Virus record (IMG/VR): IMGVR_UViG_3300043411_001639
Span: 92,733-156,732 of that record
Length of the DNA stretch: 64,000 bases
Strand: one strand, 5' to 3'
DNA from: a virus
Within the stretch, counting starts at the first letter, position 1, and each line of letters starts with the position of its first letter. The notes beneath the pieces were generated by a model that saw nothing but the letters and a program-made list of their open reading frames with translations, searched no databases and was not told the DNA's origin. Position numbers and translations under genes: made by a program. Positions 14,802 through 61,039 of this stretch are shown piece by piece.

Positions 14802-14810
14802 ATATAACAT

Positions 14811-23799: not shown

Positions 23800-24639
23800 C
23801 TACATCAACAGGATTTTACCAATATAATAACCAATTAAATTCTCTATATGACCCACAATGTTTTCTTCATATGAGGGTAAATCTTGTTTATACATTTCAA
23901 GAGCATGTCGGTTGCTAGGATTAATATCCCCATAGAATTTTATAGTTTTTGGTAGTTGAAGTTTAACTGTTCCCGTTAATAAATACTGTGCTATCAATTC
24001 ATAAACAAATTCATATCCTCTATTAAGTTTCTTGTCTCTGGCGGACTTCATTGTTCCTATTTGTTGAAATACTTCTCCCAAGCCTGGTTCAAATAACTTA
24101 GTGAAATAAATACCATAAACTTCACCCAGAATATTTCTTAGGATTGAAGTTAATTCTCTTTCAAAATATTGAAACTCTTCAGGGTTCCCTTTCCCATTCA
24201 TCATATCCCTATTCATTACATGTCCAAATCTATGAGCAATTGTCCAACCTGTCATTGGAACTTTTTGATCACCAAAATTACCGTTAAAAATTATAGTAAT
24301 ACTATCAGGGTTTGGGTCTGGAATTTCATTGGGTGATATTTTTAGTTCTGTTCTCAGAAAATTTAAATCTATTGGACCTATCTCTTGGTAATCTTCACTG
24401 TTTGTGTAAGATTTATTAAGCATATAAACATCAAAGTTAAATTTTGTTCTTTCCCACTGTTTTGTTATTTTTTCAATAGCTTTTGGATTTGTTAATAATT
24501 TTCTGTCAGTGTCATCAAATCCACCTTCTTCAGCTTCTCTACCTGTAAAATTTCCTACAAGTTTTGTCTTGATTGGCATTTCATTCAAGATTACTGACTC
24601 AACAATCATAATGAACTTTTGTTTTTCAAACTGATCCAT
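23800..24639 (-). CDS. Putative internal head protein with degenerate metallopeptidase motif
   Basis: I choose the ATG at 24637-24639; the longer frame (ATG at 24678) has no better support and this start puts a targeting-like peptide (M-D-Q-F-E-K-Q-K-F-I... ending L-N-E at residue 20) at the N-terminus. Residues 136-140 are H-R-F-G-H inside W-T-I-A-H-R-F-G-H-V, laid out like the zinc site H-E-x-x-H but with Arg in place of the catalytic Glu; a later E-L-I-A-Q-Y-L-L helix (about 214) resembles the third ligand helix. This suggests a metallopeptidase fold without normal catalysis. It is an isolated minus-strand gene between the tail operon and the replication genes. Confidence 0.6.
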   Translation of the reverse strand: MDQFEKQKFIMIVESVILNEMPIKTKLVGNFTGREAEEGGFDDTDRKLLTNPKAIEKITKQWERTKFNFDVYMLNKSYTNSEDYQEIGPIDLNFLRTELKISPNEIPDPNPDSITIIFNGNFGDQKVPMTGWTIAHRFGHVMNRDMMNGKGNPEEFQYFERELTSILRNILGEVYGIYFTKLFEPGLGEVFQQIGTMKSARDKKLNRGYEFVYELIAQYLLTGTVKLQLPKTIKFYGDINPSNRHALEMYKQDLPSYEENIVGHIENLIGYYIGKILLM

Positions 24640-24657
24640 GTTCTCTAGAATATATGT

Positions 24658-24915
24658 ATGATGAACAACTCTAAACAAGAACAGTTGGGTTTGATCCTAG
24701 CTCTACAGTATCAGAAAGAAACAGATACTATACTATGGGATTTATTAAACACAAAAAAGTATCATGGTTTAGTAGACATCTGGTATGAGTTTAACAATGA
24801 CAGGTTAGATATTAAATTCCAGCAGATAAAAACACCTGATGTTCAGAAACATAATAATGAAACAATGAGATGGTTTGTTAGTCAAGAAAAACAAGCTGTA
24901 AAACACGTTGTTTAA
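24658..24915 (+). CDS. Small hypothetical protein, 85 aa
   Basis: The frame starts at ATG 24658 (or ATG 24661) just outside the divergent minus-strand gene and leads toward the primase. The protein is soluble, Gln/Lys-rich, with T-I-L-W-D-L-L-N-T-K-K and W-Y-E-F-N-N-D motifs, and resembles no family I know. It fills the space between two firm genes in the direction of the primase operon. A short non-coding gap (24916-24953) follows. Confidence 0.5.
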   Translation: MMNNSKQEQLGLILALQYQKETDTILWDLLNTKKYHGLVDIWYEFNNDRLDIKFQQIKTPDVQKHNNETMRWFVSQEKQAVKHVV

Positions 24916-33944: not shown

Positions 33945-34273
33945 GGGAAAGCTTCAATGACAATATCATGTCCTGCTATCCAAGCTACTTGTTTGTAGTG
34001 TTCAAAAAATACTGGATAAAGTAGTACGTCATCATCGCCATATGTGTTTTGTTCTTTGTGTTCTTTTAGATAACTTCTCTTTGTTTTTGCAGGTCTTCCA
34101 TCTATCTTACCTAAACTTCCTTGTTTAACCCCTCCTACAAATTTTGGATTAATATATCCTCTGTCATCAAAAATATACTGTCCATTTATATTTGGAACTG
34201 TATAAACAGAAGCAGGAATATCTCTTACATCTGTTGAGTGAGATCTTGAAACTTTAACTAAATCACCTATCAT
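33923..34273 (-). CDS. Hypothetical protein downstream of GroEL, 116 aa
   Basis: This is a small beta-rich protein with K-F-V-G-G-V-K-Q-G-S-L-G and an R-P-A-K-T-K-R-S-Y-L basic stretch, ending V-A-W-I-A-G-H-D-I-V-I-E. It overlaps the GroEL stop by four bases, so it is in the chaperonin operon, where a co-chaperonin (GroES, T4 gp31) would be expected. I see no GroES signature, so no call is made. Confidence 0.6.
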   Translation of the reverse strand: MIGDLVKVSRSHSTDVRDIPASVYTVPNINGQYIFDDRGYINPKFVGGVKQGSLGKIDGRPAKTKRSYLKEHKEQNTYGDDDVLLYPVFFEHYKQVAWIAGHDIVIEAFPQPDINL

Positions 34274-35919
34274 TGTTGTTCACCTTTACTTGTTAATTCT
34301 GATTCATTTTCATTCATAATTACACCGCCTGAAGTTAGAACCGTTCCAACAACACTTGAAGCATGTTGTAAAGCATGTTTTGCTACTTTTACTGGATCTA
34401 TTATTCCAAGTTGTATTAAATCTCCAAACTGTTCTGTTGAAGCATCATATCCATATGAAAAACTTTGATCTGTTGCTTGTTCAAGTTTCTCACAAACAAT
34501 CTCTGAACTTTTACCAGTATTTTCAACTATGGTTCTAAGAGGTTCTTTACAAGCATGAAGAACCGTTAAATAACCTGTTCTTTTGTCACCTTTTAATACT
34601 TGATGCCTTTCTAGTTGTTTCTCAAGAGTTCCAGCAATTTTAAACAACGCTGTTCCTCCTCCTGGTATAATTCCTTCTTGAACTGCTGCTATTGTAGCAT
34701 TCAAAGCATCTTCAACCCTGTCTTTTTTTTCAAAAATTTCAGGTTCAGAACTTCCTCCTACTCTAATAACTGCTATTCCACCAGCTAGTTTAGCTAGTCT
34801 TTTTCTCTGACTAACTCTTTGATTATCTGTTAGATGTTCATTAAGAGAACCCTTGATATCTTCAATTCTCTTCTGTAGTTTTTGTTTTACTTCAACTGTT
34901 GCTTCTTCACATAAAAAAGTAGCAGTAGTTCTTGAAACTATAATTTTTTTACATGTTCCAAGATCTTTGGTTGTTAGTTTTTTCAGAGAGTTTTCATTCC
35001 CAGCGTCCAACACAGTACCTTGAGTTAATAAACCCATGTCATGCAACAGATCTATTCTATAATCTCCAAACCCAGGTGCTTTAATAGCACAACATTTTAA
35101 TACTTCTTTCATCTTATTAACAATAAGACTGTGTAAAGCTTCTCCTTCTATCTCGTCTCCTATTACTAGAAGAGATCTATTTTCATTAGCTACTGCTTCT
35201 AGTACAGGAATTAAATCTTGCAGGTTTGATATTTTCCTGTTTGTTATTAAAACATATGGGTTTTCTAACTCTGCTATGTTTTTTTCTTGATTTGTTATGA
35301 AATAAGGTGAAACATATCCTGATTCAACCTGCATTCCTTCAACAACTTCAAGTGTAGTGTTAAAAGATTTAGTGGGCTCAATAGTAATAATACCATCTGG
35401 ACCTACAAGTTTAATGGCTGATGCTATCAACCTACCAACTGTTTTATCACCGTTAGCTGATATGGTTCCTATGTTTACTATATCTTCTTCATTTCTAACA
35501 GGGATTGATTTTAGACTATTAAGAACATCTCTAGTAGCAAGATCCATTCCTTGTTTGAACAAGATTGGGTTTGCTCCTGCTTCAATAAGTTTATGTCCTT
35601 CCTTTAACAAAGAAAATGCTAACACTACCGATGTTGTAGTACCATCCCCCGCATTGTCATTAGTTTTACTTGCTACTTCTTTAAGAAGTTCTGCTCCTAT
35701 ACTTGGAAGTTTTTTTCTTAAGTTGATAGCTCTAGCGACCGTAACACCATCTTTTGTAATCTGAGGTAACTGATTCCCTCTGTCAATGATAATGTTTTTA
35801 CCGGAAGGACCCATGGTAGTTTTTACAGCTCTATATAAAACCTCTGCTCCTTCTAACAAACCCTTTCTTGCTTCGCTGTCAAACACTACATCTTGTTTTA
35901 GTTTTAAACTGTTAATCAT
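34270..35919 (-). CDS. groEL: GroEL-type chaperonin (group I)
   Basis: The 549-residue protein is a full GroEL: K-T-T-M-G-P-S-G-K-N, T-K-D-G-V-T-V-A, G-D-G-T-T-T-S (catalytic Asp92), G-I-I-P-G-G-G-T-A-L and V-E-D-A-L-N-A-T. The C-terminal Gly-Gly-Met repeat of E. coli GroEL is absent; the tail is acidic/polar. It would fold phage capsid or tail proteins; T4 instead brings only gp31 and uses the host GroEL. The gene lies in a minus-strand operon between packaging and portal genes. A TTGGCA-N18-TATAAC-N6 sequence precedes its ATG. No GroES is visible in the window, so the partner may come from the host. Confidence 0.95.
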   Translation of the reverse strand: MINSLKLKQDVVFDSEARKGLLEGAEVLYRAVKTTMGPSGKNIIIDRGNQLPQITKDGVTVARAINLRKKLPSIGAELLKEVASKTNDNAGDGTTTSVVLAFSLLKEGHKLIEAGANPILFKQGMDLATRDVLNSLKSIPVRNEEDIVNIGTISANGDKTVGRLIASAIKLVGPDGIITIEPTKSFNTTLEVVEGMQVESGYVSPYFITNQEKNIAELENPYVLITNRKISNLQDLIPVLEAVANENRSLLVIGDEIEGEALHSLIVNKMKEVLKCCAIKAPGFGDYRIDLLHDMGLLTQGTVLDAGNENSLKKLTTKDLGTCKKIIVSRTTATFLCEEATVEVKQKLQKRIEDIKGSLNEHLTDNQRVSQRKRLAKLAGGIAVIRVGGSSEPEIFEKKDRVEDALNATIAAVQEGIIPGGGTALFKIAGTLEKQLERHQVLKGDKRTGYLTVLHACKEPLRTIVENTGKSSEIVCEKLEQATDQSFSYGYDASTEQFGDLIQLGIIDPVKVAKHALQHASSVVGTVLTSGGVIMNENESELTSKGEQQ

Positions 35920-42330: not shown

Positions 42331-42951
42331 ATGTCAAACAAAAAGATGTTGCTAGAAAACTCTATTATATTTGAGTACAACGATCAAAAAATCACACAAG
42401 AAGACAATGGTTGTATGATAGTAGAGGGAATAGTTCAGAGAGCAGATGCAGAAAATCATAATGGCAGAAGCTATCCTTATCAAACACTTGTTAAAGAAGT
42501 AGAGAACTACAAGAAAAAAATTCGTGATAAATGTGCTTGGGGTGAACTTGACCACAGAGACTCTCCTACTATTGAGATGGAAAAAGTATCACATAGATTT
42601 CTTGACATCTGGGAAGAAAATAAAACTTTCTATGCCAAGGTACAGGTTTTAGGAGCTCCAACAAAGGGAGCTATAATTCAAACAATGATTAGAGCAGGTG
42701 GCAAACCTGGAATATCTTCAAGAGCCCTTGGTTCTGTAAAAAAACAAGGTGGTATTGATGTAGTACAAGAAGACTTACAACTAATTTGTTGGGATTTTGT
42801 TTCTGACCCTAGTACCCATGGAGCTTATATGAATCTTAGAGAAGGGAAAGAAATAGATCTTGAAGAGTTTAACAAAACTCTAACTAAACCCGAAAAAGTT
42901 GATAGAATAGCAAATGATATTCTAGAATATATCAAAAGATCTGTAAAATAA
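42331..42951 (+). CDS. Prohead core protease, T4 gp21-like (S80 family)
   Basis: The 206-residue protein has the HK97/gp21 protease layout: N-G-R-S-Y-P after strand one, G-E-L-D-H-R-D with catalytic His75, and P-G-I-S-S-R-A-L-G with the catalytic serine (129/130), then a C-W-D-F-V-S-D-P strand. It cleaves scaffold, capsid and internal proteins after [I/L]-x-E during head maturation. Its own N-terminus contains S-I-I-F-E at residues 11-15, a likely self-cleavage site. A ribosome site (GGAG) precedes the ATG. Confidence 0.88.
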   Translation: MSNKKMLLENSIIFEYNDQKITQEDNGCMIVEGIVQRADAENHNGRSYPYQTLVKEVENYKKKIRDKCAWGELDHRDSPTIEMEKVSHRFLDIWEENKTFYAKVQVLGAPTKGAIIQTMIRAGGKPGISSRALGSVKKQGGIDVVQEDLQLICWDFVSDPSTHGAYMNLREGKEIDLEEFNKTLTKPEKVDRIANDILEYIKRSVK

Positions 42952-42955
42952 TATT

Positions 42956-43354
42956 ATGAAAATCACAGAATCATCATTGAAAGCTATCATAAAAGAATGT
43001 CTTAAAGAAGTTTTATCTGAAATGGTGTTACAAGAACATCAAACAACAACAACTCAGAGAACTCAGCAAACAAATCCATTGATAGGGTTGATAGCTGCTA
43101 GTGCTGCAAAAGGGAATCCTGAACAGAAAAAACTTTATGAAGGAATATTAACAGACGCTGTGTTAAACAGTCGTGATTCTGAAGTTATTCCAGCCGATGC
43201 TCTTAATCAGTTCAAACAACAGCAATCTCAACAACAACCTTCCGGTCCTCAAGCTAACAACACTTCAAAATATCCTAACAGATGGGCAGAACTAGCATTC
43301 AGTAACAACTCTAGTGAGTTAACTGGTTTGTTAGCTAGTAAAATGTCTGATTAA
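42956..43354 (+). CDS. Putative internal or core protein with MKIT-type targeting peptide
   Basis: The 132-residue protein opens M-K-I-T-E-S-S-L-K-A-I-I-K-E, an amphipathic helix running to V-L-S-E (residue 22) and V-L-Q-E (27), both [I/L]-x-E sites. The N-terminus is nearly the same as that of the gene at 61042. The remainder is Gln/Asn/Ser-rich and low in complexity. Position directly after the protease supports a head-core substrate. Confidence 0.55.
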   Translation: MKITESSLKAIIKECLKEVLSEMVLQEHQTTTTQRTQQTNPLIGLIAASAAKGNPEQKKLYEGILTDAVLNSRDSEVIPADALNQFKQQQSQQQPSGPQANNTSKYPNRWAELAFSNNSSELTGLLASKMSD

Positions 43355-47886: not shown

Positions 47887-49641
47887 ATGGCAACAATAAC
47901 AGGTATTTATAAAATTACAAACAAAGTTAATGGTAAGTTTTATGTTGGTAGTTCAACTAACATAACAAAGAGATGGTGGACACATAAAACAGAATTAAAG
48001 AGTGGTAAACATTGTAATATTCACTTACAAAGTTCTTGGAATTTACATGGAGAAACAAGTTTTGAATTTAGTATAGTTGAACAGTTAAGTGAAGATGTTT
48101 CTGATGAAGAGTTGAAGGAAAAGGAACAGATTTATTTAGATGAATGTTGGGACAATGGAGTTAACTGTTATAACATGTCAAAGATAGCTGACAGACCTTG
48201 CCCCGTTGAACTTCCAGTATTACAGATTGATAAGGTTACAGGTGTGGTTGTTAAACAATGGGACAGTGCTACTGAGGTTGAGAAACAGTTAGGTTGGGCA
48301 AGAAACAACATAGGTAACTGTTGTAGAGGTATACTAGGAACTTTTAAAGGATTTAGGTGGCAGTATGTTGACAACACAAAGAGCAACTATACCCAGAAGG
48401 AAACCTTACAACATGGAGGACACAATAAGAGAAAGGTTGTTAGGGTTAATTCTACGACTGGAGTTGTTGAGGAAGAGTATGGTAGTTTACAAGAAGCTGC
48501 TGATAAAAACAACTTAAAAAGTTATTTAAACGTATTAATGGTTTGCAAAGGGACAAGACAACATACTCATGGACTTGTTTTTAGATACGCAGAGGATAAC
48601 AACAGTAGTATTGTTAACAACAATGGCATTAGTTGTTTAGTGTGTGGGCTTACAGGTTTTAGTGGATTAAAACCTCTTGCTACTCATATTCAGTTGTCTC
48701 ATAAGCCATTAACCTCCCAAGAATATACAGTAAGATATCTAATGGGCTTAACAGCACCTCCTAGTTGTTTAATGTGTAGTAACATACCAAGATATGTTAG
48801 TTTTAGTTTTAAACAATACTGTAAGGAACATGCTAGTATAGCAGAAAGTGTTGGCGGTAAATTTAACAAGGGAAGAACAAGGAAGACAACCACAGCCTCT
48901 ACACTGCCCGAGAATATTCTGGTTGAAGGAATACGTGTTGGGATATATCAACTGACTAACAAGAGTTATAGTAAAGACTGGTGGCTTGAACAGAAGAAAC
49001 AAGATCCAGATTTACTACTGTTTTATTCTGATGACTGGGATAACAAGAGAGAGTTAGTTCAGTCAATGATTGACAGTAGGTTAGGTAAATCAGTTAATAC
49101 CTATGATGCTAGAAAACTCCTGGTCGTTGAAGATCCAGAGTTAACAAAACAGTTCTTAGAACTTAATCACATATCAGGGGTTTGTAGATCTGTTAAATCT
49201 TTTGGTCTAGTGGATAAAACTAGTGGTGAACTTGTTTGTTTGTTAACTCTTAGAAAACCACTACACAAACAAGAACCAAGTGTTGTTGAGATAGCAAGGT
49301 TTTGTTCAAAACAACAGTCAAATGTTAGAGGTGGTTTTAGTAGGTTGTTGTCTGCTTCTGTTAGGTGGAGTGCTAGTAACAACTATACTAAGATGATCTC
49401 TTACTGTGATCTTAACACTGGAACAGGGAGAGTATATGAGGCTACAGGATTTAAACTTCTAAAGGAAAACACAGGAGTAAATTACTGGTACACAGATGGA
49501 CAAGTAAGATACAACAGGTTTAAGTTTAGAGCTCAACCAGGAAAAACTGAAAAGGAAGTAGCAGAAGAGAATGGTGTTCATAAGGTTTATGGTTGTGGTA
49601 ACTCGCTCTATGAACTAGATCTATCAGATAAAACTAACTAA
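47887..49641 (+). CDS. Composite GIY-YIG homing endonuclease
   Basis: The 584-residue protein begins with a GIY-YIG nuclease (G-I-Y-K-I-T-N...K-F-Y-V-G-S-S-T, then R and the catalytic E in a later helix). Two NUMOD1-like DNA-binding repeats follow (about 110-165 and 182-240; each starts V-x-x-x-x-x-x-T-G-V-V). Next is a Cys/His segment (C-L-V-C-G...H-I-Q-L-S-H, about 250-280) and a C-terminal domain (about 345-584) with I-S-Y-C-D-L-N-T-G-T-G-R-V-Y-E-A-T-G-F and W-Y-T-D-G, a pattern seen in phage Hef-like homing proteins and GNAT/Mom-like folds. It sits right after the capsid gene, with its own promoter. The 3' end overlaps a convergent gene by 18 bases. Confidence 0.85.
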   Translation: MATITGIYKITNKVNGKFYVGSSTNITKRWWTHKTELKSGKHCNIHLQSSWNLHGETSFEFSIVEQLSEDVSDEELKEKEQIYLDECWDNGVNCYNMSKIADRPCPVELPVLQIDKVTGVVVKQWDSATEVEKQLGWARNNIGNCCRGILGTFKGFRWQYVDNTKSNYTQKETLQHGGHNKRKVVRVNSTTGVVEEEYGSLQEAADKNNLKSYLNVLMVCKGTRQHTHGLVFRYAEDNNSSIVNNNGISCLVCGLTGFSGLKPLATHIQLSHKPLTSQEYTVRYLMGLTAPPSCLMCSNIPRYVSFSFKQYCKEHASIAESVGGKFNKGRTRKTTTASTLPENILVEGIRVGIYQLTNKSYSKDWWLEQKKQDPDLLLFYSDDWDNKRELVQSMIDSRLGKSVNTYDARKLLVVEDPELTKQFLELNHISGVCRSVKSFGLVDKTSGELVCLLTLRKPLHKQEPSVVEIARFCSKQQSNVRGGFSRLLSASVRWSASNNYTKMISYCDLNTGTGRVYEATGFKLLKENTGVNYWYTDGQVRYNRFKFRAQPGKTEKEVAEENGVHKVYGCGNSLYELDLSDKTN

Positions 49642-50337
49642 CAAACTATTAGTAGGTTTTCCAGAAGATTTAACATAGTTCTTCAACTCAGACTTCTTAA
49701 GTTTAAAGAATGTGTTGATATCACCATTATCTCTTAAGATCAACAGTCCTTCAGTTTTATAGTCATAAACATAAACTTTGAATAAACCTATTTGATCTAT
49801 TTTAAATTCAATGGTTGAAGGTAGGTTGTTTCTTAGTTGATCTTCTGTAAAACTATCAATGTTTTGTTTGGAAGATATTGCTGTGTTAATCAAGGCATTA
49901 TAACCGTCTGTAAAGGCTTGGTTTATTCCAGCACAGTATTCCTCAAGTTTATTTAATGCGCCGGTTGTAGCTACCTTGTCGTTGACAGCATCAAGTGTTA
50001 CGAGTAAAGTATTGGTATTTTTTATTGCTTCAGGTATTAAGTTGTTGTCTAGTTGTTCTCCTGATTTATTCCTTAATACTAGATTTCTTGTATTGGCTAG
50101 TAAGAATCTTTTTAGTTTGTTTAGTAAAGATTTAACACTAGCAGGTTTGAATTCTTTTAAGTGTTTCAGAGCGTGACTAGTATCATTGTGGGTTGCGCCT
50201 TGAACTTTATATTGATCTTTAGGATCAAACAATATTATATAATCAGATGGGAACAACCAGTCTTGATCTTTTCCTTTGTTGAAAGGTATTTTAGTTTTAA
50301 CATCTTCAAATATAAGATTGTATAACACGACTAACAT
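49624..50337 (-). CDS. Putative internal head protein, 237 aa
   Basis: The N-terminus M-L-V-V-L-Y-N-L-I-F-E-D is short, hydrophobic and ends in I-F-E, like T4 capsid-targeting peptides. The body is alpha/beta with H-N-D-T-S-H-A-L-K-H-L-K-E-F near the start and a Leu/Asn-rich middle. On the minus strand a CATAAATA box (one mismatch from the T4 late element) lies about 15 bases upstream of the ATG. Isolated on the minus strand between the endonuclease and neck genes. No domain is recognised. Confidence 0.5.
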   Translation of the reverse strand: MLVVLYNLIFEDVKTKIPFNKGKDQDWLFPSDYIILFDPKDQYKVQGATHNDTSHALKHLKEFKPASVKSLLNKLKRFLLANTRNLVLRNKSGEQLDNNLIPEAIKNTNTLLVTLDAVNDKVATTGALNKLEEYCAGINQAFTDGYNALINTAISSKQNIDSFTEDQLRNNLPSTIEFKIDQIGLFKVYVYDYKTEGLLILRDNGDINTFFKLKKSELKNYVKSSGKPTNSLLVSFI

Positions 50338-50367: not shown

Positions 50368-51669
50368 ATGTCAACCTTTATTACAACTCTAAGACCTACA
50401 CCTTTTGGTTTCTATGACAGTGATCCTATATTCCAATGGGATGCTGAGAGAATGGTAACATTTGTTATGAGAGCTTTAGGTGAAGATATCTTGTCTGTTG
50501 AACTAACAAATAAAGTAATCTGGATGTGGTTTGAAAATGCCACAAGAGAGTTCCAGGGTTTTATTATTGAATATCAGGCGAAAAGTAACCTTGCTAGTAT
50601 TCTTGGTATGCCTTCTGGTTCATTGAACCTTAACAATCCGTTTGATCCTAACAACATCAACTTAACAAACATGTATGTTCATCAGAACCTTGAGTTTGTT
50701 AACAGTCTTGCAGATGCTTATAGTGAGATCATAGGTCTTGGTGGAAAACAAGAAACTTATTCAGGATCAATAACTCTTGAACTTGGAAGACAAGACTATA
50801 ACCTAAACACTGAACTAAAGAATGATAGTGGTGATGCTCTGTATGGATTACAGCCTTCTGGTTCTGTTGATAAAATGACAATCCACGAAATATTCCATGT
50901 ATCACCTATGAACTATATGTTTAGTGGAGGTAGCATGAGTCCTGGTATGTTATCAAACAATCTATCAAGTTTTGCAGGTCAGATAGGTGGAGGAAGTATG
51001 GCTTTCTTTCAAGTCCTTCCAGTGTTTGATGATTTACTCAAGTGGGGACATCTTAAAATGTCTGATAAGGTTAGAAGATCCCACTACACTTATAAAGTAT
51101 CAGGTAAGATGTTAAGAATATTCCCTGTTCCTACAAACATAGTTGAAGGAGTGAATAATAAACTCTGGATCAGAGTAGGTTACAGACAAACAGCACTTCC
51201 TGGTTTAGAGAACAGTCTTGTAGTATCAGGTACAAGAAACTTAACTAATACTCCAGCCGGTACTCAGGTTTTGTTTGGTGCTAACAACCCAGCTAACATT
51301 CCCTATGGACTAATAACTTATAAGACATTAAATCAATGGGCAAGAAACTGGATAGCTCAATATACTCTGGCTTGTTGTATGGAGTATGTTGGTAACATCA
51401 GATCAAAGATTAAATCTATTCCCGCTGGAGATAAAGAGATCAGTCTGAATGGTGATGATCTAGTATCCAGAGGTAGAGAAGATAAAGAAAAACTCCTAAC
51501 AGGTTTAAAAGAAAAACTTGAAAGTCTTACCTATGACAAACTCATGGAACAAGAAGCTACAAGAGCAGAGAACATGATCAAACAACTTAACTACATCCCT
51601 CTTCCGGCTCATGCAGTTATTCGTGTCCGCGTAAAGAGAAGAAATAAAACAAAAATCAAACTTGTTTAA
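50368..51669 (+). CDS. Neck protein, probable T4 gp13-like
   Basis: The 433-residue protein begins F-Q-W-D-A-E-R-M-V-T-F-V-M-R-A-L-G-E-D and includes N-K-V-I-W-M-W-F-E-N-A-T-R-E-F, and its C-terminal half has Y-K-T-L-N-Q-W-A-R-N-W-I-A-Q-Y-T-L-A. Order (capsid, this gene, further neck-like genes, sheath, tube) matches T4 genes 13-14-15-18-19. gp13 forms the collar between head and tail with gp14. The assignment is by position and overall pattern, not by a diagnostic motif. Confidence 0.55.
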   Translation: MSTFITTLRPTPFGFYDSDPIFQWDAERMVTFVMRALGEDILSVELTNKVIWMWFENATREFQGFIIEYQAKSNLASILGMPSGSLNLNNPFDPNNINLTNMYVHQNLEFVNSLADAYSEIIGLGGKQETYSGSITLELGRQDYNLNTELKNDSGDALYGLQPSGSVDKMTIHEIFHVSPMNYMFSGGSMSPGMLSNNLSSFAGQIGGGSMAFFQVLPVFDDLLKWGHLKMSDKVRRSHYTYKVSGKMLRIFPVPTNIVEGVNNKLWIRVGYRQTALPGLENSLVVSGTRNLTNTPAGTQVLFGANNPANIPYGLITYKTLNQWARNWIAQYTLACCMEYVGNIRSKIKSIPAGDKEISLNGDDLVSRGREDKEKLLTGLKEKLESLTYDKLMEQEATRAENMIKQLNYIPLPAHAVIRVRVKRRNKTKIKLV

Positions 51670-51688
51670 TTCCATACTTATCAACACT

Positions 51689-52327
51689 GTGAATTCCTTT
51701 GATTTTCTACTTGAAACTTTGTCTTATGAAGAACTTAAAAAAGCTATCAAGCAACACATTCTTGACAACAAAGATACAGAACTTGAAAGACATAAAGATT
51801 CAATATTAAAACTAATTGATCAAGGAAAGTATAAAAAACTACTTCATGTTAAAAACACAAAGTATGTTTACAGAATCATTGATTTTAAAGACATTAAATT
51901 TTTAGAAACCATAACAAACACCAGACAACTATCCAAAGAACCTGGAGTAGTACACAAACTTCCCAAGGGAATACTAAAACCCAAGAAAGATATTTCCAGT
52001 TGGACTTCTAATCCCAGATCATTAATCTACAGCGGGTTTCTTTCTGTTTTATCTTCTTCAAAAACAAACCTAGTGTTGTTCAGAGCAAAAGTAAACAATA
52101 AAAACAACACGTTGTTTGGTAATCCAGATGACATGGCTAAAGAAGTTAAAACAGATAATGGTTATTTCTATGAGAAAGAAGTAATAGGAATGGGAGATAT
52201 AGTTTATGACAAGGCTGTATACCAAATTCAACAAGAAGGTTTAGGACTTGAAGCTCTGGCACTTAACCTGATTAACACACTAGAAGATTTTAAGAAGATA
52301 AAGTACGAAGGGGATTATTATGCCTAG
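51689..52327 (+). CDS. Putative ADP-ribosyltransferase with head-targeting peptide
   Basis: I place the start at GTG 51689 (a TTG at 51662 is also open). The product then begins M-N-S-F-D-F-L-L-E, which ends in L-L-E like the Alt targeting peptide of T4. The body shows a mono-ADP-ribosyltransferase triad: Y-V-Y-R (R62), S-S-W-T-S (about 103-107, the S-x-S-like strand) and F-Y-E-K-E-V-I-G (E162/E164, E-x-E). These would use NAD to modify host proteins; T4 Alt enters with the DNA and modifies RNA polymerase. It lies inside the neck operon, overlapping the next gene by eight bases. Confidence in the fold is moderate. Confidence 0.55.
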   Translation: MNSFDFLLETLSYEELKKAIKQHILDNKDTELERHKDSILKLIDQGKYKKLLHVKNTKYVYRIIDFKDIKFLETITNTRQLSKEPGVVHKLPKGILKPKKDISSWTSNPRSLIYSGFLSVLSSSKTNLVLFRAKVNNKNNTLFGNPDDMAKEVKTDNGYFYEKEVIGMGDIVYDKAVYQIQQEGLGLEALALNLINTLEDFKKIKYEGDYYA

Positions 52328-52985
52328 ATTGTTTGTTACTTCAAAAGAGATTGAGTACATGAATGATGTAATCAAAGAAGTTATTAAAGATGTTGTAGGA
52401 CAGAAAATATACTATTATGCTATATCAAAGGCTGGTACTACTGTTAATAAAATCTATAATGAATCAGATAAAAAAGTGTTTGAACCACCACTAGCTCTTG
52501 ATGTTCTAATAGGACAACCACAGTGGGAAGGTAAGTTTAATAAATTTGGCTATCAACAAGGAGCTACTGTTGAAATAGTCGTACAAGCCAGAGATCTGAT
52601 AGATAAAAGAATACAGATATTCCAAGGGGATTATTTTGTCTATGGTGATGCGGCGTTTGAAATTGTTTCTTATCTAAACATGAACAATATATTTGGGCAA
52701 GAAGAATATGAAAGTGCGTATAAGATCATAGGCAAACTAGCACTTCCAGGTGAGTTTGACTCAACAAGTTTGTTTAATCCAACGAAAGAATCTATTGACA
52801 ACTCTGGTATTGAACAGAAGTTTGAACAACAAAGAGGGATTGAGACTGATTCTAAAGGCAGACCAACTGGAGATATAAGACAAGTACAAGAGAGACTTAA
52901 GCAAGAGAATGACTTACCTCCAGTAGCAATGAATGAAGGTCCAAGAAAAGTAATTAAAACAAAGGGATTCTTCTATGATGAATAA
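52320..52985 (+). CDS. Neck protein, possible T4 gp14-like
   Basis: The 221-residue protein starts R-L-F-V-T-S-K-E-I-E and has I-Y-Y-Y-A-I-S-K-A-G-T-T-V-N-K-I-Y-N-E, then F-G-Y-Q-Q-G-A-T-V-E-I-V-V. It lies between the probable gp13 and a tail completion-like gene, as in T4. The C-terminal third is charged and probably flexible. The assignment rests mainly on gene order; the sequence pattern is only suggestive. Confidence 0.5.
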   Translation: MPRLFVTSKEIEYMNDVIKEVIKDVVGQKIYYYAISKAGTTVNKIYNESDKKVFEPPLALDVLIGQPQWEGKFNKFGYQQGATVEIVVQARDLIDKRIQIFQGDYFVYGDAAFEIVSYLNMNNIFGQEEYESAYKIIGKLALPGEFDSTSLFNPTKESIDNSGIEQKFEQQRGIETDSKGRPTGDIRQVQERLKQENDLPPVAMNEGPRKVIKTKGFFYDE

Positions 52986-53700
52986 ATATGATGGTTCTTG
53001 GTCAACCTATGAGTTTGTGTTTGAGGAAGAAACCCCTGAATTAACTGACTATCAAGATTCAGTTAATAGATCCAACTATATCATACAAGAGATAGAGGGT
53101 TTAAGGAAACAATACAAGCAGGCTTATGCGGGCTTTGGAATAATAGAACAACTAATACGGGAGTTACCTCAGATAGAATATTTACTGTCAAACAAAGAGG
53201 AGCTAGAGGGTATTAAAGGTAATGCTTACCAAGCTGCTAGTTTATTAGCTGAGAGTCAGCTTACCATACAAGGTATCTACGGATTCATAGCTGTACTACT
53301 AAACAAAAACGTGATAAATAGACTAGAAAACTATAAAACAATATCTGAAATGTTAAAGATGAAAGAATTGGTACAGGCATTTGATACAAGTATCAAGGTT
53401 ATGAACCAGTTAGTTTCTGGACAAGTACCTTTGAGACTTAGCAGTGCAGAAGTATCCTATAGTTTATACAAGAAACTGTGGGATCTAGGATTTAATAGTT
53501 CCAAGGTATTGTTATCTCCAGAAGAGTACAAAGATTCTCCTGCAAAAACTCTGGTTGAAGGATTTACTTATAAACTTCTAATAGCTTATTATAGTTTCTT
53601 GGGTATTCATAATAGTTTAGCGGTGTTAACAACACAACTAAACAAGGCACATGATGTTCCAGAACTAAACAGGTGGTTAAAAACTCATACACCTAGTTAA
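52975..53700 (+). CDS. Hypothetical helical protein, 241 aa
   Basis: The start is one of two in-frame ATGs (52975, 52978) within the previous stop region. It is largely helical, with Q-A-A-S-L-L-A-E-S-Q-L-T-I and a hydrophobic segment G-I-Y-G-F-I-A-V-L-L-N. T4 has no equivalent at this position. Co-transcription with neck genes suggests a virion or assembly role. Confidence 0.55.
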   Translation: MMNKYDGSWSTYEFVFEEETPELTDYQDSVNRSNYIIQEIEGLRKQYKQAYAGFGIIEQLIRELPQIEYLLSNKEELEGIKGNAYQAASLLAESQLTIQGIYGFIAVLLNKNVINRLENYKTISEMLKMKELVQAFDTSIKVMNQLVSGQVPLRLSSAEVSYSLYKKLWDLGFNSSKVLLSPEEYKDSPAKTLVEGFTYKLLIAYYSFLGIHNSLAVLTTQLNKAHDVPELNRWLKTHTPS

Positions 53701-54919: not shown

Positions 54920-57900
54920 ATGGCAGAAAAAAAACTTAGAGCTCCTGGTTTTCAGGCAAATGAAATAGATTTAACAATCCCAAAAGCAGAAGAACCAACT
55001 GGAGTTCCTCATGCAATCATAGGTCCATCTCAGAAGGGTCCAGCATTTGTACCTAGTCTGATAGGTAATTTTCCTAGTTTTGAAGCAAGGTTTGGAGGAC
55101 ACAACGGAGAGTTTATTACTTCTTATGCTGTTGAACAGGTGGTTGGCAATGGAAAACCTGTGTTGTTTATCAGAACTCTTGGAGCAGGAACAAACAAGAC
55201 AGTAACAGATATTGAGCTAACAAGAGTAACAGATACTGTTAGACATGCAGGTATGAAAGTAACAGGAAGTGCAATAGCAGATCTAAGACACAATGGATCA
55301 GTTCAATTCCTAGCAGCTAAACACGTTGTAACAAGTTCTGAAGCAGTTAGCTATCCTATGTTTAGTGATAACCAGAGTTATACAATGACCTCTAACTATG
55401 TTCATTTGATCAGAGGGGTTGTTTTTACAGCTTCTGATACTCGTCTCATGGTTATGAGTGCTTCTGAAGAAACATTTGGTAACTTACTAGATGATTCAGT
55501 TACTATTGATGATACAATTACCAACCCAACCTATAGAAAATTTAAACTTGTTATTTCAAGTTCTGTTGGTGCAACTTTTGCTACTACAGATGGTCTAAGC
55601 GGTTTAAGAATCTTAACTGCTTCCTTTAACCCTTCCAGCAATGATTATTTTGGCAAGATTCTAAACAAAGATCCTGAAAAGTTCAGCACAGAAAAACACT
55701 TGTTATATTGTGATTTTCCTGTTGATAATGAAGTTGCAACAGTAGCTTCAGGTTCTGGAAACACAGAAACAGTTGTGGTTCTTTCAGGAAGTAGTGTTAC
55801 TTCTCCAAACTCAGGACTTACTTCTTTGAGTTTTAGAGACGCTTTTGGTTATTACAACACAAGATACACTACTCCAAAAACACCTATGTTTATTTCTCAG
55901 CCTTTTGGGGAAACTGAACATGACTTGTTTTATGTTGAAGCTATAGATGATGGTGCAGTTGCTACGACCAAATACAAAATCAGTATTTCAAATATCAAGA
56001 GAAGTATAGATCCAAAATATGCTTACGGCACCTTTACTCTTCTTGTAAGAGATTTTAATGACTCAGATTTTGAACCTAAAATTCTAGAAAGATTCTCAGA
56101 ACTAAGTCTAGATCCAGATTCAGTTTCATTTATTGGAAACGTGATAGGTGATAGAAAAATCTATTTTAACTTTGATGTTGAAAACGAAGATGATAGAAGA
56201 CTCGTAGTTAATGGAAAATACCCAAACAACTCAAAATTTATCAGAGTTGTTATCAGTCAAAACGTAATCAACAAACAAATTCCTGAAAGTTGTCTTCCCT
56301 TTGGTTTCAAGGGTGTACCTGTTTTAAATACAAACACTCTTCAAACAGATTCAACTCCAAGACTAGCCTTAGCAAGACTAGCAGGTTCAGGATCATTTAA
56401 CTCAAGACTAACAGGTTCTATTGTTCCTCCTCTTCCAATGAGATTTAAAGTAACAAGAGGTGAAGTAAACTCAAGTCCTAGTTTCACAGGGCATAATGGT
56501 CCTAGTGAAATAGTTGACTCAAGATTGTTTTGGGGTGTTAAATTTGAAAGAAACAACAACCTTTCAAATCCTAATCTAAGTTCAGAAAAAAATGAACTCA
56601 TAAACTCTTATGCTAAGTTTCAAGGTTTATCAAAACTTGATGTTCTTATAACAGGATCTTATGCCGATTCATTTAACAATAATAAATTTAGTTTAGCCAA
56701 AGTAGCTTTGTCTTTTGGTAGTATTGAATTTCTTACAGCTTCAATTGATACACACATGAAAGAAGCAGCTTATATAAGAAACGGCAAAAACATTGTTGAT
56801 TTTTTTTACGCTATTGAAGATGGGAGTTGGGGCGGTAGATTAACCTTGATGTCCTTGTTGGAATTATCTTATTATATTCCTGCTCAATTATCAACATTCA
56901 ATAGATTTTCTGAATATATGAAATTTTCAACCTTCATGTATGGTGGTTGGGATGGAACAAACATCTTTGATAGAGCAGCTAATAGATTTAATGATAGATC
57001 AACCTCAACAGAATCAAGTAGTATTGGCTATGGAGGGGCTTCAACAAGTTACTCATCACCAGGAGCCACAACAGGTGTAAACCATGCTGGATATGGACTT
57101 GAAAACAATCAAGTTAACTCTTATCTGCAAGCAGTTAATCTAGCAACAGATCCAAATCTTTCAATAGCAAACATAGTTTGTGCACCAGGAATAAGAGAAC
57201 CTTTGATAACTGACTATCTTCTTGATAGATGTCATTCAGAACATCAAATGTCTGAAGGGGTAATTGATGTTCCTTATTACGATGATCAAAACATTCGTAT
57301 ATTTGATGGTGAAACCAGAAGAACCATTGACATAGAAAACACAGCTAAAAATTTTGATTCAAGAACAATTGATAAAAATGTAGGAGTAACATACTTCCCT
57401 AACGTTACCATTGAAGATGGTACAAATAAAAAACTCCTAACAGTTCCAGCTTCAATTGCAGCTTTGAGTGCTATATCTTACACAGATAAAGTTAGTTTTC
57501 CTTGGTGGGCAGTTGCGGGTTTGAACAGAGCTTCACTTGATTTTGTCAAGGGAGCACAAGTAAGAATCAACAACAAAACAGACAGAGAAATTCTATACTC
57601 AGCTAGAATTAATCCTATAATAAAACTTCCAAGAGAAAGTTTTGTTATTTGGTCGCAACAAACACTAGCTCTAGGAGATAGTTTGTTTACTAACCTAAAC
57701 ATCAAACGTATGGTTCTTGAAATAAAAAGAATCATTGTGGCAATAGCTACAAGACTTGTGTTTGAAAACATTACTCCTGATCTATATCAGAACTTTACAA
57801 CTCAAACAAATTCTGTTCTTTCTGTTGTACAAACAAGAGAAGGAGTAGAGAGTTTCAAGGTAATTTGTGATGAAACAAACAACTCAGATGACGATAGAAA

Positions 57901-58006
57901 CAACAATAAAATGAATGGTGTCATCATGATACAACCAACCAAAGCTTTTGAATATATTGAATTAAGTTTTGCAGTATACCCAAGCGGGGTTGTCTTTTCG
58001 GACTGA
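54920..58006 (+). CDS. Tail sheath protein 1, T4 gp18-like
   Basis: The 1028-residue protein starts with the gp18 pattern: A-P-G-F-Q-A-N-E-I-D-L-T, then G-V-P-H-A-I-I-G-P-S-Q-K-G-P-A-F-V-P, and it ends with the family's C-terminal core (N-I-K-R-M-V-L-E-I-K-R, and the strand I-E-L-S-F-A-V-Y). It is much longer than T4 gp18 (659), so it has large surface domains inserted in the middle. Many copies form the contractile sheath. A ribosome site (AAGGA) lies before the ATG at 54920. It is followed after a 27-base gap by a second sheath gene. Confidence 0.88.
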   Translation: MAEKKLRAPGFQANEIDLTIPKAEEPTGVPHAIIGPSQKGPAFVPSLIGNFPSFEARFGGHNGEFITSYAVEQVVGNGKPVLFIRTLGAGTNKTVTDIELTRVTDTVRHAGMKVTGSAIADLRHNGSVQFLAAKHVVTSSEAVSYPMFSDNQSYTMTSNYVHLIRGVVFTASDTRLMVMSASEETFGNLLDDSVTIDDTITNPTYRKFKLVISSSVGATFATTDGLSGLRILTASFNPSSNDYFGKILNKDPEKFSTEKHLLYCDFPVDNEVATVASGSGNTETVVVLSGSSVTSPNSGLTSLSFRDAFGYYNTRYTTPKTPMFISQPFGETEHDLFYVEAIDDGAVATTKYKISISNIKRSIDPKYAYGTFTLLVRDFNDSDFEPKILERFSELSLDPDSVSFIGNVIGDRKIYFNFDVENEDDRRLVVNGKYPNNSKFIRVVISQNVINKQIPESCLPFGFKGVPVLNTNTLQTDSTPRLALARLAGSGSFNSRLTGSIVPPLPMRFKVTRGEVNSSPSFTGHNGPSEIVDSRLFWGVKFERNNNLSNPNLSSEKNELINSYAKFQGLSKLDVLITGSYADSFNNNKFSLAKVALSFGSIEFLTASIDTHMKEAAYIRNGKNIVDFFYAIEDGSWGGRLTLMSLLELSYYIPAQLSTFNRFSEYMKFSTFMYGGWDGTNIFDRAANRFNDRSTSTESSSIGYGGASTSYSSPGATTGVNHAGYGLENNQVNSYLQAVNLATDPNLSIANIVCAPGIREPLITDYLLDRCHSEHQMSEGVIDVPYYDDQNIRIFDGETRRTIDIENTAKNFDSRTIDKNVGVTYFPNVTIEDGTNKKLLTVPASIAALSAISYTDKVSFPWWAVAGLNRASLDFVKGAQVRINNKTDREILYSARINPIIKLPRESFVIWSQQTLALGDSLFTNLNIKRMVLEIKRIIVAIATRLVFENITPDLYQNFTTQTNSVLSVVQTREGVESFKVICDETNNSDDDRNNNKMNGVIMIQPTKAFEYIELSFAVYPSGVVFSD

Positions 58007-58033: not shown

Positions 58034-61000
58034 ATGGTAGAACAATTTAGAAGTGCTGGCGTTACAACAAGAGAAATTGAACAACAAAACATTGTTGCCC
58101 AACAATCTAACGCAATTCCAGCATGTGTGATATCAACCACAGAAAAAGGGCCAGCTTTCCTCCCAACCATATTAACTTCACCAGAAGAATATGAAACAAC
58201 TTTTGGAGTTTCAACAACTGATAATCCGTATGGTTTCCTTTCCGCTAATGAATGGCTGAGTTATCAGCCTTCTTTAATGCAAGTTAAAATACTAGGAGTA
58301 GGGGATGGAACTAAAAGAACATCAACAGAAACAAACAAAGGAAAAGTAACCAATGCTGGATTTGTTGTTGGCGATCAACAACCTCAATCAAGTTTAAGTG
58401 GTGGTTTAGCTAACAACCCTTATGCTGTTCCTACAAGTGCAGGAGCTATCGCAGCAACAGGAAGAAACTATGTTCTAGCTGTTGCCATGAGTCAGAGTGT
58501 TGGTTCAACTTATTTTACAGAAGCGGGTTTATCAGCTACTCCGATTATACTCAGAGGTATGATCATGGCAGCTTCAGGGGTTGTTCTAACTCTTTCAGCT
58601 TCAAATGTTTCAAGTGATATGGCAGACAACACTGTTGCAGCAGATATTACTGTTTCTGCTAACATCAAAGGTTTCCATACTGGTTCCGTAAATCTTCAAG
58701 AAGGTTCACAGAACTTTGTTATGTTACTTAATGGGCACAGAGGTTCAACAAGTTATCCCAGAGTGTTAACAGGAAGTTTTGATCATACAAGAAACAACTA
58801 TTTTGGAAACATCTTTAATAAAGATCCACTAAAACTTGAAGAAGCAGGACATTTACTATACAGTTATTTTGATATCAACAGTGCGGTTGCTACTGTTACA
58901 GGATCAGGAATTGTTCCCGCTGTTTCAGGGGCAGGAACAACAGTTGGAGCTGGTTATGAAAGAATAGCATTCTTAGTAACATCTTCAAGAGAAAGAAACA
59001 TGGGTTCTGCTACTGTTCCTAATTTTGAAGGATTTGAGGATAGATTTAGAACAGCAAACAGTAGTTGGATCATGTCACAAAAGTTTGGTGGAACTCCAAT
59101 AAATCTATTTAAGTTTTGGAGTTTAGATGATGGTGAAATAGGACATAAAAAAGTTAAGATTACTATTGAAAACATCACGCCTTCCAACAACACTTCATAC
59201 TTGTTTGGTACATTTGATGTTGTTGTTAGGGATATCAATGATAATGATACAAATAAAATTGTACTTGAACCATTCAGAGGTTTATCCCTTGATCCTAAGA
59301 ACGCAAGATTTATAGGTAAGATTATAGGAAATGGTTACACTTATTTTAACTTTGATGCCGCTGAATCAAAACAAAAACTAGTAGACCTTGAAGGTTACCC
59401 TGTTAGATCAAAATATATCAGGGTTGAACTGTCAGATGAAGTAGTTGAAGAATCTATTGATCCTTCCGCTTTACCAATGGGATTCAGAGGACCACAACAC
59501 TTGGTAACATCAGGAAGTGCAGTATTCAACACTCACTCAGATGACTATCTGACTATTTCAAATCCGTTTAGAAGAATAGTACAACTTCCTGTACCAATGA
59601 GAATCAATCTTGTAAAAGGAACTGGAAGCTCACAAACTGTTGATAGAAATCTTTGTTGGGGGGTTCAGTTTGAACAAAGAATCTCTGCAACAGAACCTAA
59701 CTCTACTATCAGACCCAATACAAGTCTTGACAGTTTTAAAAAATACTATCCAAATTACCATACAGAATACATGAATGTTGTGGTAAAAGACAATGAAGGT
59801 GTAGCAGATACAGCGGAAAACACTGTTCTTGATTCAGATAGATTTAACAACAACGTTTTCACCCTAGAAAACGTTCAAGTAACTTACAACGCTACTAGCT
59901 TACTTCCTGATCTAAACACACTAACTTCCTGGAGTTATGTTAGACAAGGGGGAATTACCACAAACACTGGTGCTCTAACAAGAGCACTAACAGTTACAGA
60001 CCTAAGAGATACAGGAGTTAGAGCCCTTGGTAAGTTTTCTTTTTATCTTGAAGGTGGTTTTGATGGTGTTAGAATTTTTAACCAAGAAACTAAAAGGCTT
60101 TCAAACATAGCCACCGTAGAGGAATACACAAACAGTACCAGAGGTTTAACTCAAGGTCCAACTATTAAAGCCTACCAAAAAGCTCTTGATATTGTAGGAG
60201 ACACCTCCTATCTTGATTTTCAAATTATAACAATACCTGGAATGAGACTTGCTTATCTGACAGATCTTGCTCAAAACTTAATGGAAACATCAAAAGATGC
60301 AATGTTTATCATGGACATTGAAGAGAGAGACAGTGGTAATCAAAAAGTTCTATCTGAAACTCAAGTAGTTAATGTTTTAAATACTATAACAGATTTCCAG
60401 AACAGAGGAATCAGCACTTCTTATACTTCAGCTTATTTCCCTGACGCTAACGTATTAAACAGATCTTCAAGAACAAGAGTTAGAGTTCCTCCTTCTGTTG
60501 TAGTTCTAGGAATATTTGCTAAGAATGATTCAATAGGTCATCCTTGGACAGCACCAGCAGGTTATACTAGAGGAAACCTATCTTCAACAGAAAGTCTAAC
60601 AACTATTCTTTCAAGAAAAAATATGAACGATCTTGCATCAGCAAACATCAACCCTCTTGTTGTGTTTCCAGGTCAAGGTCCGGTTGTTTGGGGACAGAAA
60701 ACCCTTAATGACAAGATGTCAGCTTTTGATAGAATCAATGTTAGAAGACTACTACTGGATCTTAGAAGAAAAGTAAGAACAGTAGCACAAAGAATGTTGT
60801 TTGAACCTGCTAGAGATACAACCCTTGCAAGATTCTCAGCACTAGTAAACCCAATACTAAAACGTATTCAAGATCTAAAAGGTGTTGAACAGTACAAGGT
60901 AATCATTGATACCTCTACTACTACAGAAGCAGACATAGAAAACAAAACAATTAGAGGATTGATCCTACTTGTTCCTACAAAAGCTCTTGAGTTTGTATCT

Positions 61001-61039
61001 CTTGACTTCGTTGTTACTAACACTGGAGTAAATGTATAA
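58034..61039 (+). CDS. Tail sheath protein 2 (diverged paralogue)
   Basis: The 1001-residue protein has the same ends as the preceding sheath: T-R-E-I-E-Q-Q-N, A-C-V-I-S-T-T-E-K-G-P-A-F-L-P near the start and N-V-R-R-L-L-L-D-L-R-R and L-V-P-T-K-A-L-E-F-V-S near the end. The middle parts also run parallel (F-D-H-T-R-N-N-Y-F-G-N-I-F-N-K-D-P, F-R-G-L-S-L-D-P), yet overall they differ. So it is a tandem, diverged copy. AGGAG precedes the ATG. Both genes keep the gp18 core, so both may build the sheath, or one may form a special ring. Confidence 0.85.
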   Translation: MVEQFRSAGVTTREIEQQNIVAQQSNAIPACVISTTEKGPAFLPTILTSPEEYETTFGVSTTDNPYGFLSANEWLSYQPSLMQVKILGVGDGTKRTSTETNKGKVTNAGFVVGDQQPQSSLSGGLANNPYAVPTSAGAIAATGRNYVLAVAMSQSVGSTYFTEAGLSATPIILRGMIMAASGVVLTLSASNVSSDMADNTVAADITVSANIKGFHTGSVNLQEGSQNFVMLLNGHRGSTSYPRVLTGSFDHTRNNYFGNIFNKDPLKLEEAGHLLYSYFDINSAVATVTGSGIVPAVSGAGTTVGAGYERIAFLVTSSRERNMGSATVPNFEGFEDRFRTANSSWIMSQKFGGTPINLFKFWSLDDGEIGHKKVKITIENITPSNNTSYLFGTFDVVVRDINDNDTNKIVLEPFRGLSLDPKNARFIGKIIGNGYTYFNFDAAESKQKLVDLEGYPVRSKYIRVELSDEVVEESIDPSALPMGFRGPQHLVTSGSAVFNTHSDDYLTISNPFRRIVQLPVPMRINLVKGTGSSQTVDRNLCWGVQFEQRISATEPNSTIRPNTSLDSFKKYYPNYHTEYMNVVVKDNEGVADTAENTVLDSDRFNNNVFTLENVQVTYNATSLLPDLNTLTSWSYVRQGGITTNTGALTRALTVTDLRDTGVRALGKFSFYLEGGFDGVRIFNQETKRLSNIATVEEYTNSTRGLTQGPTIKAYQKALDIVGDTSYLDFQIITIPGMRLAYLTDLAQNLMETSKDAMFIMDIEERDSGNQKVLSETQVVNVLNTITDFQNRGISTSYTSAYFPDANVLNRSSRTRVRVPPSVVVLGIFAKNDSIGHPWTAPAGYTRGNLSSTESLTTILSRKNMNDLASANINPLVVFPGQGPVVWGQKTLNDKMSAFDRINVRRLLLDLRRKVRTVAQRMLFEPARDTTLARFSALVNPILKRIQDLKGVEQYKVIIDTSTTTEADIENKTIRGLILLVPTKALEFVSLDFVVTNTGVNV

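What the first reader, a model, noticed from the sequence alone, without database searches (positions are those of the whole stretch)
51689..52327. Putative Alt-like ADP-ribosyltransferase inside the neck operon
An R-S-E triad (R62, S-W-T-S near 104-107, E-K-E at 162-164) follows a nine-residue peptide ending L-L-E, the same order of parts as T4 Alt (targeting peptide, then ART domain), though far shorter (about 213 versus 682 residues). It may be a minimal injected host-modifying enzyme.
Basis: inference. Interest (0 to 1): 0.65.

Follow-up and report, generated by a model that had tools for sequence, protein, structure and literature searches.

The report
Capsid-tagged ADP-ribosyltransferase in phage neck operon
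An uncultured T4-like phage carries, wedged between two neck genes, a small gene that very probably makes an ADP-ribosyltransferase with a short head-packing tag, which suggests that the phage carries the enzyme in its head and injects it to modify its host; this extends a known T4 strategy to a new enzyme family.

Summary
The ORF is real: GTG 51689 or TTG 51662 to 52327, overlapping gp13 and gp14 by 8 bases each. On one sequence that proves little, since 39% of ORFs here match a loose R-S-E pattern. Relatives from other T4-like phage contigs (17-25% identity) settle it: across nine aligned sequences only R62, W105, E164 and G169 are invariant; S104 is kept in 8/9, and position 162 is E in 7/9 and Q in 2/9. 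AlphaFold puts R62, S104 and E164 on strands in ART order. In both models every listed PDB match with Foldseek probability of at least 0.1 is an ART, though no E-value is significant. It is a new R-S-E ART family, not an Alt-family member (hhalign probability 4% or less). The leader MNSFDFLLE resembles T4's capsid-targeting sequence, and similar leaders start other genes of this phage (kinase-like, acetyltransferase). The spot just 5' of gp14 takes inserts: usually empty, otherwise homing endonucleases, tagged proteins, related ARTs (two other lineages) and once an Arr-type ART. Best reading: a head-packaged, injected mono-ADP-ribosyltransferase. Fold class well supported; packaging inferred; activity and target untested.

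The parts
51689..52327 (+). R-S-E ADP-ribosyltransferase gene (212 aa from GTG 51689; 221 aa from TTG 51662)
   Evidence: conserved family in other T4-like phage contigs
51689..51715 (+). Codons for leader MNSFDFLLE, a putative capsid-targeting sequence; predicted cut after E9
   Evidence: F4, L7 and L-L-E fit T4 CTS rules (PMC9026906); similar leaders on other genes of this genome; inferred
51872..51874 (+). R62, first ART catalytic residue
   Evidence: Invariant in 9 of 9 aligned sequences; on model strand 59-66
51998..52009 (+). S104-W105-T106-S107, the S-T-S-type motif
   Evidence: S104 in 8/9, W105 in 9/9; on model strand 102-106
52172..52180 (+). E162-K163-E164, the E-x-E motif
   Evidence: E164 in 9/9; 162 is E in 7/9 and Q in 2/9; E164 starts model strand 164-168
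50368..51669 (+). gp13-like neck protein
   Evidence: phrog_211 head-tail adaptor, E 3.9e-5; conserved in 25 loci
52320..52985 (+). gp14-like neck protein; the insertion site lies just 5' of it
   Evidence: Conserved by sequence and order in relatives; named gp14 from position, no family match
42331..42951 (+). gp21-like prohead protease, the predicted processing enzyme
   Evidence: Position between portal and capsid genes, conserved in 49 loci; assignment by position and sequence character
42956..43354 (+). Prohead core protein with N-terminal helix MKITESSLKAIIKECLKEVLSE, the likely model of the longer helical leaders
   Evidence: Same N-terminal helix in orthologues of most relatives
52975..53700 (+). 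Gene with leader-like start TYEFVFEEE in the gp14-gp15 gap, candidate second cargo
49624..50337 (-). Gene with leader-like start LYNLIFEDV, candidate cargo

Best explanation
The gene encodes a compact mono-ADP-ribosyltransferase of the R-S-E class. It would be made late with the neck proteins and drawn into the prohead core by its N-terminal capsid-targeting peptide. The gp21-type protease would cut after E9, and the enzyme would enter the host with the DNA and transfer ADP-ribose from NAD+ to a host protein; E-x-E rather than Q-x-E is the form usual in arginine-specific ARTs (general knowledge). Shown here: intact gene, family, conserved catalytic residues, ART-like predicted fold, insertion-site position, similar leaders on other genes of the phage. 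Inferred: cleavage, packaging, injection, activity, arginine specificity and target.
For: R62, W105, E164, G169 are the only invariant positions of 141 in nine divergent sequences, with S104 8/9 and E/Q162 9/9. Model pTM 0.78 with R, S and E on strands in ART order. Every listed PDB match with probability of at least 0.1 is an ART, for this protein and for relative L106. Leader fits T4 rules and resembles leaders on kinase-like, GNAT and other genes of the same genome and on a PF18760 ART of relative G008. Family members L069, L122, L009 and L115 carry helical leaders. Members of the family lie just 5' of gp14 in G003 and L197 too, and an Arr-type ART lies between gp13 and gp14 in L143.
Against: No Foldseek E-value below 0.05 against the PDB and low TM-scores. 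No curated family recognises it. The T4-derived leader regex is only weakly enriched in this genome (8 vs 2.9 expected, p 0.013) and the stronger statistic was chosen after looking and leaves out this gene's own leader. No virion proteomics exist. Some members have no clear leader (L106, L109), and two look frame-broken (G003).
Confidence: 0.6

Rival explanations
1. An active ART that is not packaged: a late-expressed accessory gene acting in the infected cell (modifying host or phage proteins, or excluding competing phages), with a leader that is only an N-terminal extension.
For: Leader statistics are modest; family members elsewhere lie far from structural genes (G007 8.4 kb, G041 21 and 291 kb).
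Against: Leader fits T4 targeting and cleavage rules and sits outside the ART domain; similar leaders recur on unrelated enzymes of the same phage.
Confidence: 0.25
2. A degenerate or inactive ART-fold protein used for binding, for example as a decoy or adaptor.
For: Identity is low; some relatives are truncated or frame-split.
Against: The catalytic positions are the most conserved of the whole protein; the window copy is intact.
Confidence: 0.08
3. A structural neck or head-completion protein, as its operon position suggests.
For: Position between gp13 and gp14, overlapping both.
Against: gp13 and gp14 are directly adjacent in 50 of 67 relatives with both in view, and the others mostly hold homing endonucleases or unrelated proteins; ART relatives in other phages lie far from the neck.
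Confidence: 0.03
4. Not an ART: the triad is a chance pattern.
For: The loose pattern occurs in 39% of ORFs; Foldseek E-values are not significant.
Against: Conservation of exactly the pre-named residues in divergent homologues (p about 6e-4) and a consistent class of fold matches.
Confidence: 0.04

Closest known systems
T4 Alt (phrog_802, PF03496), head-packaged RNA polymerase ADP-ribosyltransferase
   Same: R-S-E type ART, short N-terminal propeptide ending in an L/I-x-E type site, phage of the T4 superfamily, presumed injected
   Different: 682 aa with the ART at 374-614; PF03496 hit that the window protein lacks; profile comparison probability 4% or less; Alt lies beside gene 30, not in the neck operon
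T4 internal proteins IPI-IPIII with capsid-targeting sequences
   Same: Short N-terminal leader with residues like Y4/F7 and L/I-x-E (PMC9026906), variable cargo behind it
   Different: IPs are small non-enzymatic proteins; here the cargo is an enzyme and the gene lies just 5' of gp14
MuF-fused and polyvalent-protein ARTs (PMC9503650, PMC5512222)
   Same: Phage ARTs thought to travel in the head
   Different: Those are fused into large head proteins; this one is a stand-alone tagged domain
Rifampin ADP-ribosyltransferase Arr (PF12120)
   Same: A PF12120 protein sits in the gp13-gp14 gap of relative L143
   Different: No PF12120 match of the window protein; different ART family

Membership tests
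ADP-ribosyltransferase superfamily, R-S-E clade | Conserved R, S(-T-S) and E-x-E (or Q-x-E) in that order | tested here: met
   R62 9/9, S104 8/9, E164 9/9, 162 E or Q 9/9
ADP-ribosyltransferase superfamily, R-S-E clade | ART fold with the triad on core strands | tested here: inconclusive
   Model places R62, S104, E164 on strands; best PDB matches are ARTs but none has a significant E-value
ADP-ribosyltransferase superfamily, R-S-E clade | NAD+-dependent transfer of ADP-ribose | not testable with these tools
   Needs purified protein
Alt family (phrog_802 / PF03496) | Sequence homology to Alt | tested here: not met
   No Pfam or PHROG match; hhalign probability 1-4%
Alt family (phrog_802 / PF03496) | About 640-700 aa with a long N-terminal region before the ART | tested here: not met
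   212 aa; the ART follows the leader directly
T4-type capsid-targeted (CTS) cargo | Short N-terminal leader with hydrophobic targeting residues and an L/I-x-E cleavage site | tested here: met
   MNSFDFLLE: F4, L7, L-L-E (rules from PMC9026906)
T4-type capsid-targeted (CTS) cargo | Same leader type enriched at N-termini in the same genome | tested here: inconclusive
   T4-derived regex 8/161 vs 2.9 expected, p 0.013; post hoc strict form 4 vs 0.07, p 9e-5, not counting this gene
T4-type capsid-targeted (CTS) cargo | Cleaved by the prohead protease and found in the virion | not testable with these tools
   Needs virion proteomics or a protease assay

The most novel reading that the evidence does not exclude
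This phage group packages a swappable set of small, separately encoded, leader-tagged host-modifying enzymes: R-S-E, PF18760 and perhaps Arr-type ARTs, phrog_4301 kinase-like proteins and a GNAT acetyltransferase, exchanged at fixed slots such as the one just 5' of gp14. That is the same enzyme repertoire as polyvalent proteins, delivered as single parts with a shared address tag rather than as one fused chain.
Probability: 0.4. Interest if true: 0.7.

Novelty: new variant of a known kind. Interest (0 to 1): 0.5.

Why it matters
Alt is the textbook injected phage ART, but which other phages pack host-modifying enzymes is largely guessed from gene neighbourhood. A recognisable leader plus a recurrent insertion slot would let candidate injected effectors be read directly from genome sequence in a large, mostly uncultured T4-like group. 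It also adds an ART family that Pfam, PHROGs and PDB sequence searches do not recognise.

Tried and rejected
Direct homology: tblastn in 50,697 phage records and a scan of viral contigs with the ORF found nothing; Pfam, PHROGs and PDB sequences likewise. Relatives surfaced only after fetching T4-like contigs by major capsid protein or gp14 and searching them with growing profiles. Scans with gp13 or with the three-row ART alignment gave nothing. Alt membership was tested and rejected. The single-sequence R-S-E pattern was rejected as evidence. The helix SYEELKKAIKQHILDN was considered as the tag, but it aligns with the ART domain's own first helix in relatives. A structural neck role was rejected because the gp13-gp14 junction is usually empty.

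Full report
OBSERVATION. The ORF is real and intact. From GTG 51689 it gives 212 residues with L7-L8-E9, R62, S104-W-T-S107 and E162-K-E164, as reported. The longest frame opens at TTG 51662. It overlaps the gp13-like gene by 8 bases and the gp14-like gene by 8 bases. Neither start has a Shine-Dalgarno, but 25 of the 45 window genes tested lack one too. The triad on its own is weak: a loose R / S-x-S / E-x-E regex matches 373 of 958 ORFs of at least 150 aa in these contigs.

WHERE IT LIES. The window is the end of a 156,732-base IMG/VR record from a divergent T4-like phage. Its major capsid protein is nearest, among named phages, to those of Microcystis phage Mel-JY01, Flavobacterium immuto phages and two huge metagenomic phages. 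The host is unknown. Eighty relatives were fetched by capsid protein and eighty loci by gp14.

A FAMILY EXISTS. The ORF has no match in Pfam, PHROGs, PDB sequences, phage genomes or viral contigs by direct search. Searching inside the fetched relatives found one homologue in G007 (E 3.6e-7) and one in L069. Growing profiles then found members in G041 (two), G008, G003 (two, one truncated and one split between two frames), G004 and L197. In the final nine-row alignment (17-25% identity to the window protein) only R62, W105, E164 and G169 are invariant. S104 is kept in 8/9, and 162 is E in 7/9 and Q in 2/9. R62 and E164 were named before any homologue was known; the chance that both fall among 4 invariant positions of 141 is about 6e-4. 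Q at that place is a known ART variant (general knowledge).

FOLD. AlphaFold with seven sequences gave pLDDT 78.5 and pTM 0.78, with R62 on strand 59-66, S104 on strand 102-106 and E164 at the start of strand 164-168, the ART order. In the 50 listed PDB matches, every one with probability of at least 0.1 is an ART: cholera and heat-labile toxin A chains, TreX, TreTu, RHS2. A second model, of relative L106, gave pertussis toxin S1 (0.85), HopU1 (0.38) and TreX (0.18) as its only such matches. No PDB E-value is significant and TM-scores are low. In the viral library the best match is an uncharacterised protein of Mimivirus AB-566-O17 (E 1.7e-4), which names no function. The class is consistent, but fold evidence alone would not be conclusive.

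NOT AN ALT-FAMILY MEMBER. T4 Alt and six homologues were fetched and their ART region compared by profile: probability 1-4%, local E 0.01-0.05. Alt is 682 aa with its ART at 374-614. The protein works like Alt in outline; it is not shown to be related to it beyond the superfamily.

THE LEADER. In T4 the first ten residues of IPIII suffice for packaging, residues 4 and 7 matter for targeting and 8 and 10 for cleavage, cuts follow L/I-x-E, and Alt's propeptide has 7 residues (PMC9026906). MNSFDFLLE has F4, L7 and L-L-E. Other genes of this genome begin similarly: VLANWLFEQD, LYFSKWLFEND, LFMFDRFLFETT, SFLMKILFFED, LYNLIFEDV, TYEFVFEEE, KFNKFIFLEA, TLQEFIFLQEG. A regex taken from T4 alone is weakly enriched (8 of 161 N-termini against 2.9 expected, p = 0.013). 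A sharper one, chosen after looking, stands at 4 against 0.07 (p = 9e-5) and does not include the ART's own leader. Several ART relatives instead carry a longer helical leader like that of the core protein beside the protease (window 42956-43354). A regex for that helix hits 33 of 1390 N-termini and 0 of 9975 internal segments, mostly the core protein's own orthologues. A recognised ART in G008 (L107 346-915, PF18760, E 7e-16) has the short leader LSKFIFEDL.

THE INSERTION SITE. Of 67 gp14 loci with gp13 in view, 50 have nothing between and 17 have an insert, mostly GIY-YIG homing endonucleases. A 142-aa protein with the leader MKTIKQLIFERE is there in L144, a 291-aa protein with a helical leader in L024, and an Arr-type ART in L143 (PF12120, E 3.5e-7). 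Just 5' of gp14, members of the same ART family occur in the window, in G003 (truncated; also in contig L154) and in L197 (intact; Y-R-F, H-S-W-S-T, Q-N-E-V). In G003 and L197 other genes precede the ART rather than gp13. The gp14-gp15 gap holds tagged or kinase-like genes in several relatives.

MECHANISM. Shown: gene, family, conserved catalytic residues, ART-like model, insertion-site position, leader resemblance. Inferred: late synthesis with neck proteins, entry into the prohead core through the leader, cleavage after E9, injection, mono-ADP-ribosylation of a host protein. Arginine as target residue is a guess from E-x-E. A survey already argues that about 44% of phage ARTs lie in head-packaging contexts (PMC9503650), and polyvalent proteins combine ART, kinase and GNAT domains (PMC5512222). 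The advance is therefore a new ART family, a stand-alone tagged format and a recurrent site, not a new principle.

SCORES. ART class about 0.85; packaging, given an ART, about 0.7; joint reading 0.6. Interest 0.5.

Noticed in passing
G000 55253-57869 and 81426-82187 (L096 15253-17869; L098 1426-2187), outside the window: Five leader-tagged genes: four phrog_4301 kinase-like proteins (D-x4-N-F-G and L-D-Y-G type motifs in three) and one GNAT acetyltransferase. Candidate further packaged effectors.
   Followed up: partly
L143 1940-2263: Arr-type rifampin ADP-ribosyltransferase (PF12120, E 3.5e-7) between gp13 and gp14 of a relative.
   Followed up: partly
L107 346-915 (G008): PF18760 ART with short leader LSKFIFEDL, a few hundred bases from an R-S-E ART of the window's family.
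   Followed up: partly
window 23800-24678 (-) and L024 9036-9911: Homologous proteins of about 290 aa with different leader-like N-termini; in L024 it occupies the gp13-gp14 gap.
   Followed up: no
window 29535-31667: Large terminase with an apparent in-frame intein (CVTGDTTIQIR...TSHNC).
   Followed up: no
window 34270-35919 (-): Phage-encoded GroEL-like chaperonin; another in relative G041 (L110 12403-14010).
   Followed up: no
window 54920-58006 and 58034-61039: Two tandem tail-sheath paralogues of about 1000 residues each.
   Followed up: no
G000 13248-16214 and 21473-22552 (L094, L095): N-termini look like an isoleucyl-tRNA synthetase and an MnmA-type tRNA thiouridylase, unusual for a phage (by eye only).
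   Followed up: no
G000 about 52.5-55.2 kb (L096 12500-15200): Stretch of up to 72% GC in an otherwise AT-rich region, with odd low-complexity ORFs; possible chimera or foreign insert.
   Followed up: partly
L009 15765-16945 and L115 648-1298 (G003): Two ART genes of one relative look broken: one split between frames, one ending before E-x-E.
   Followed up: partly
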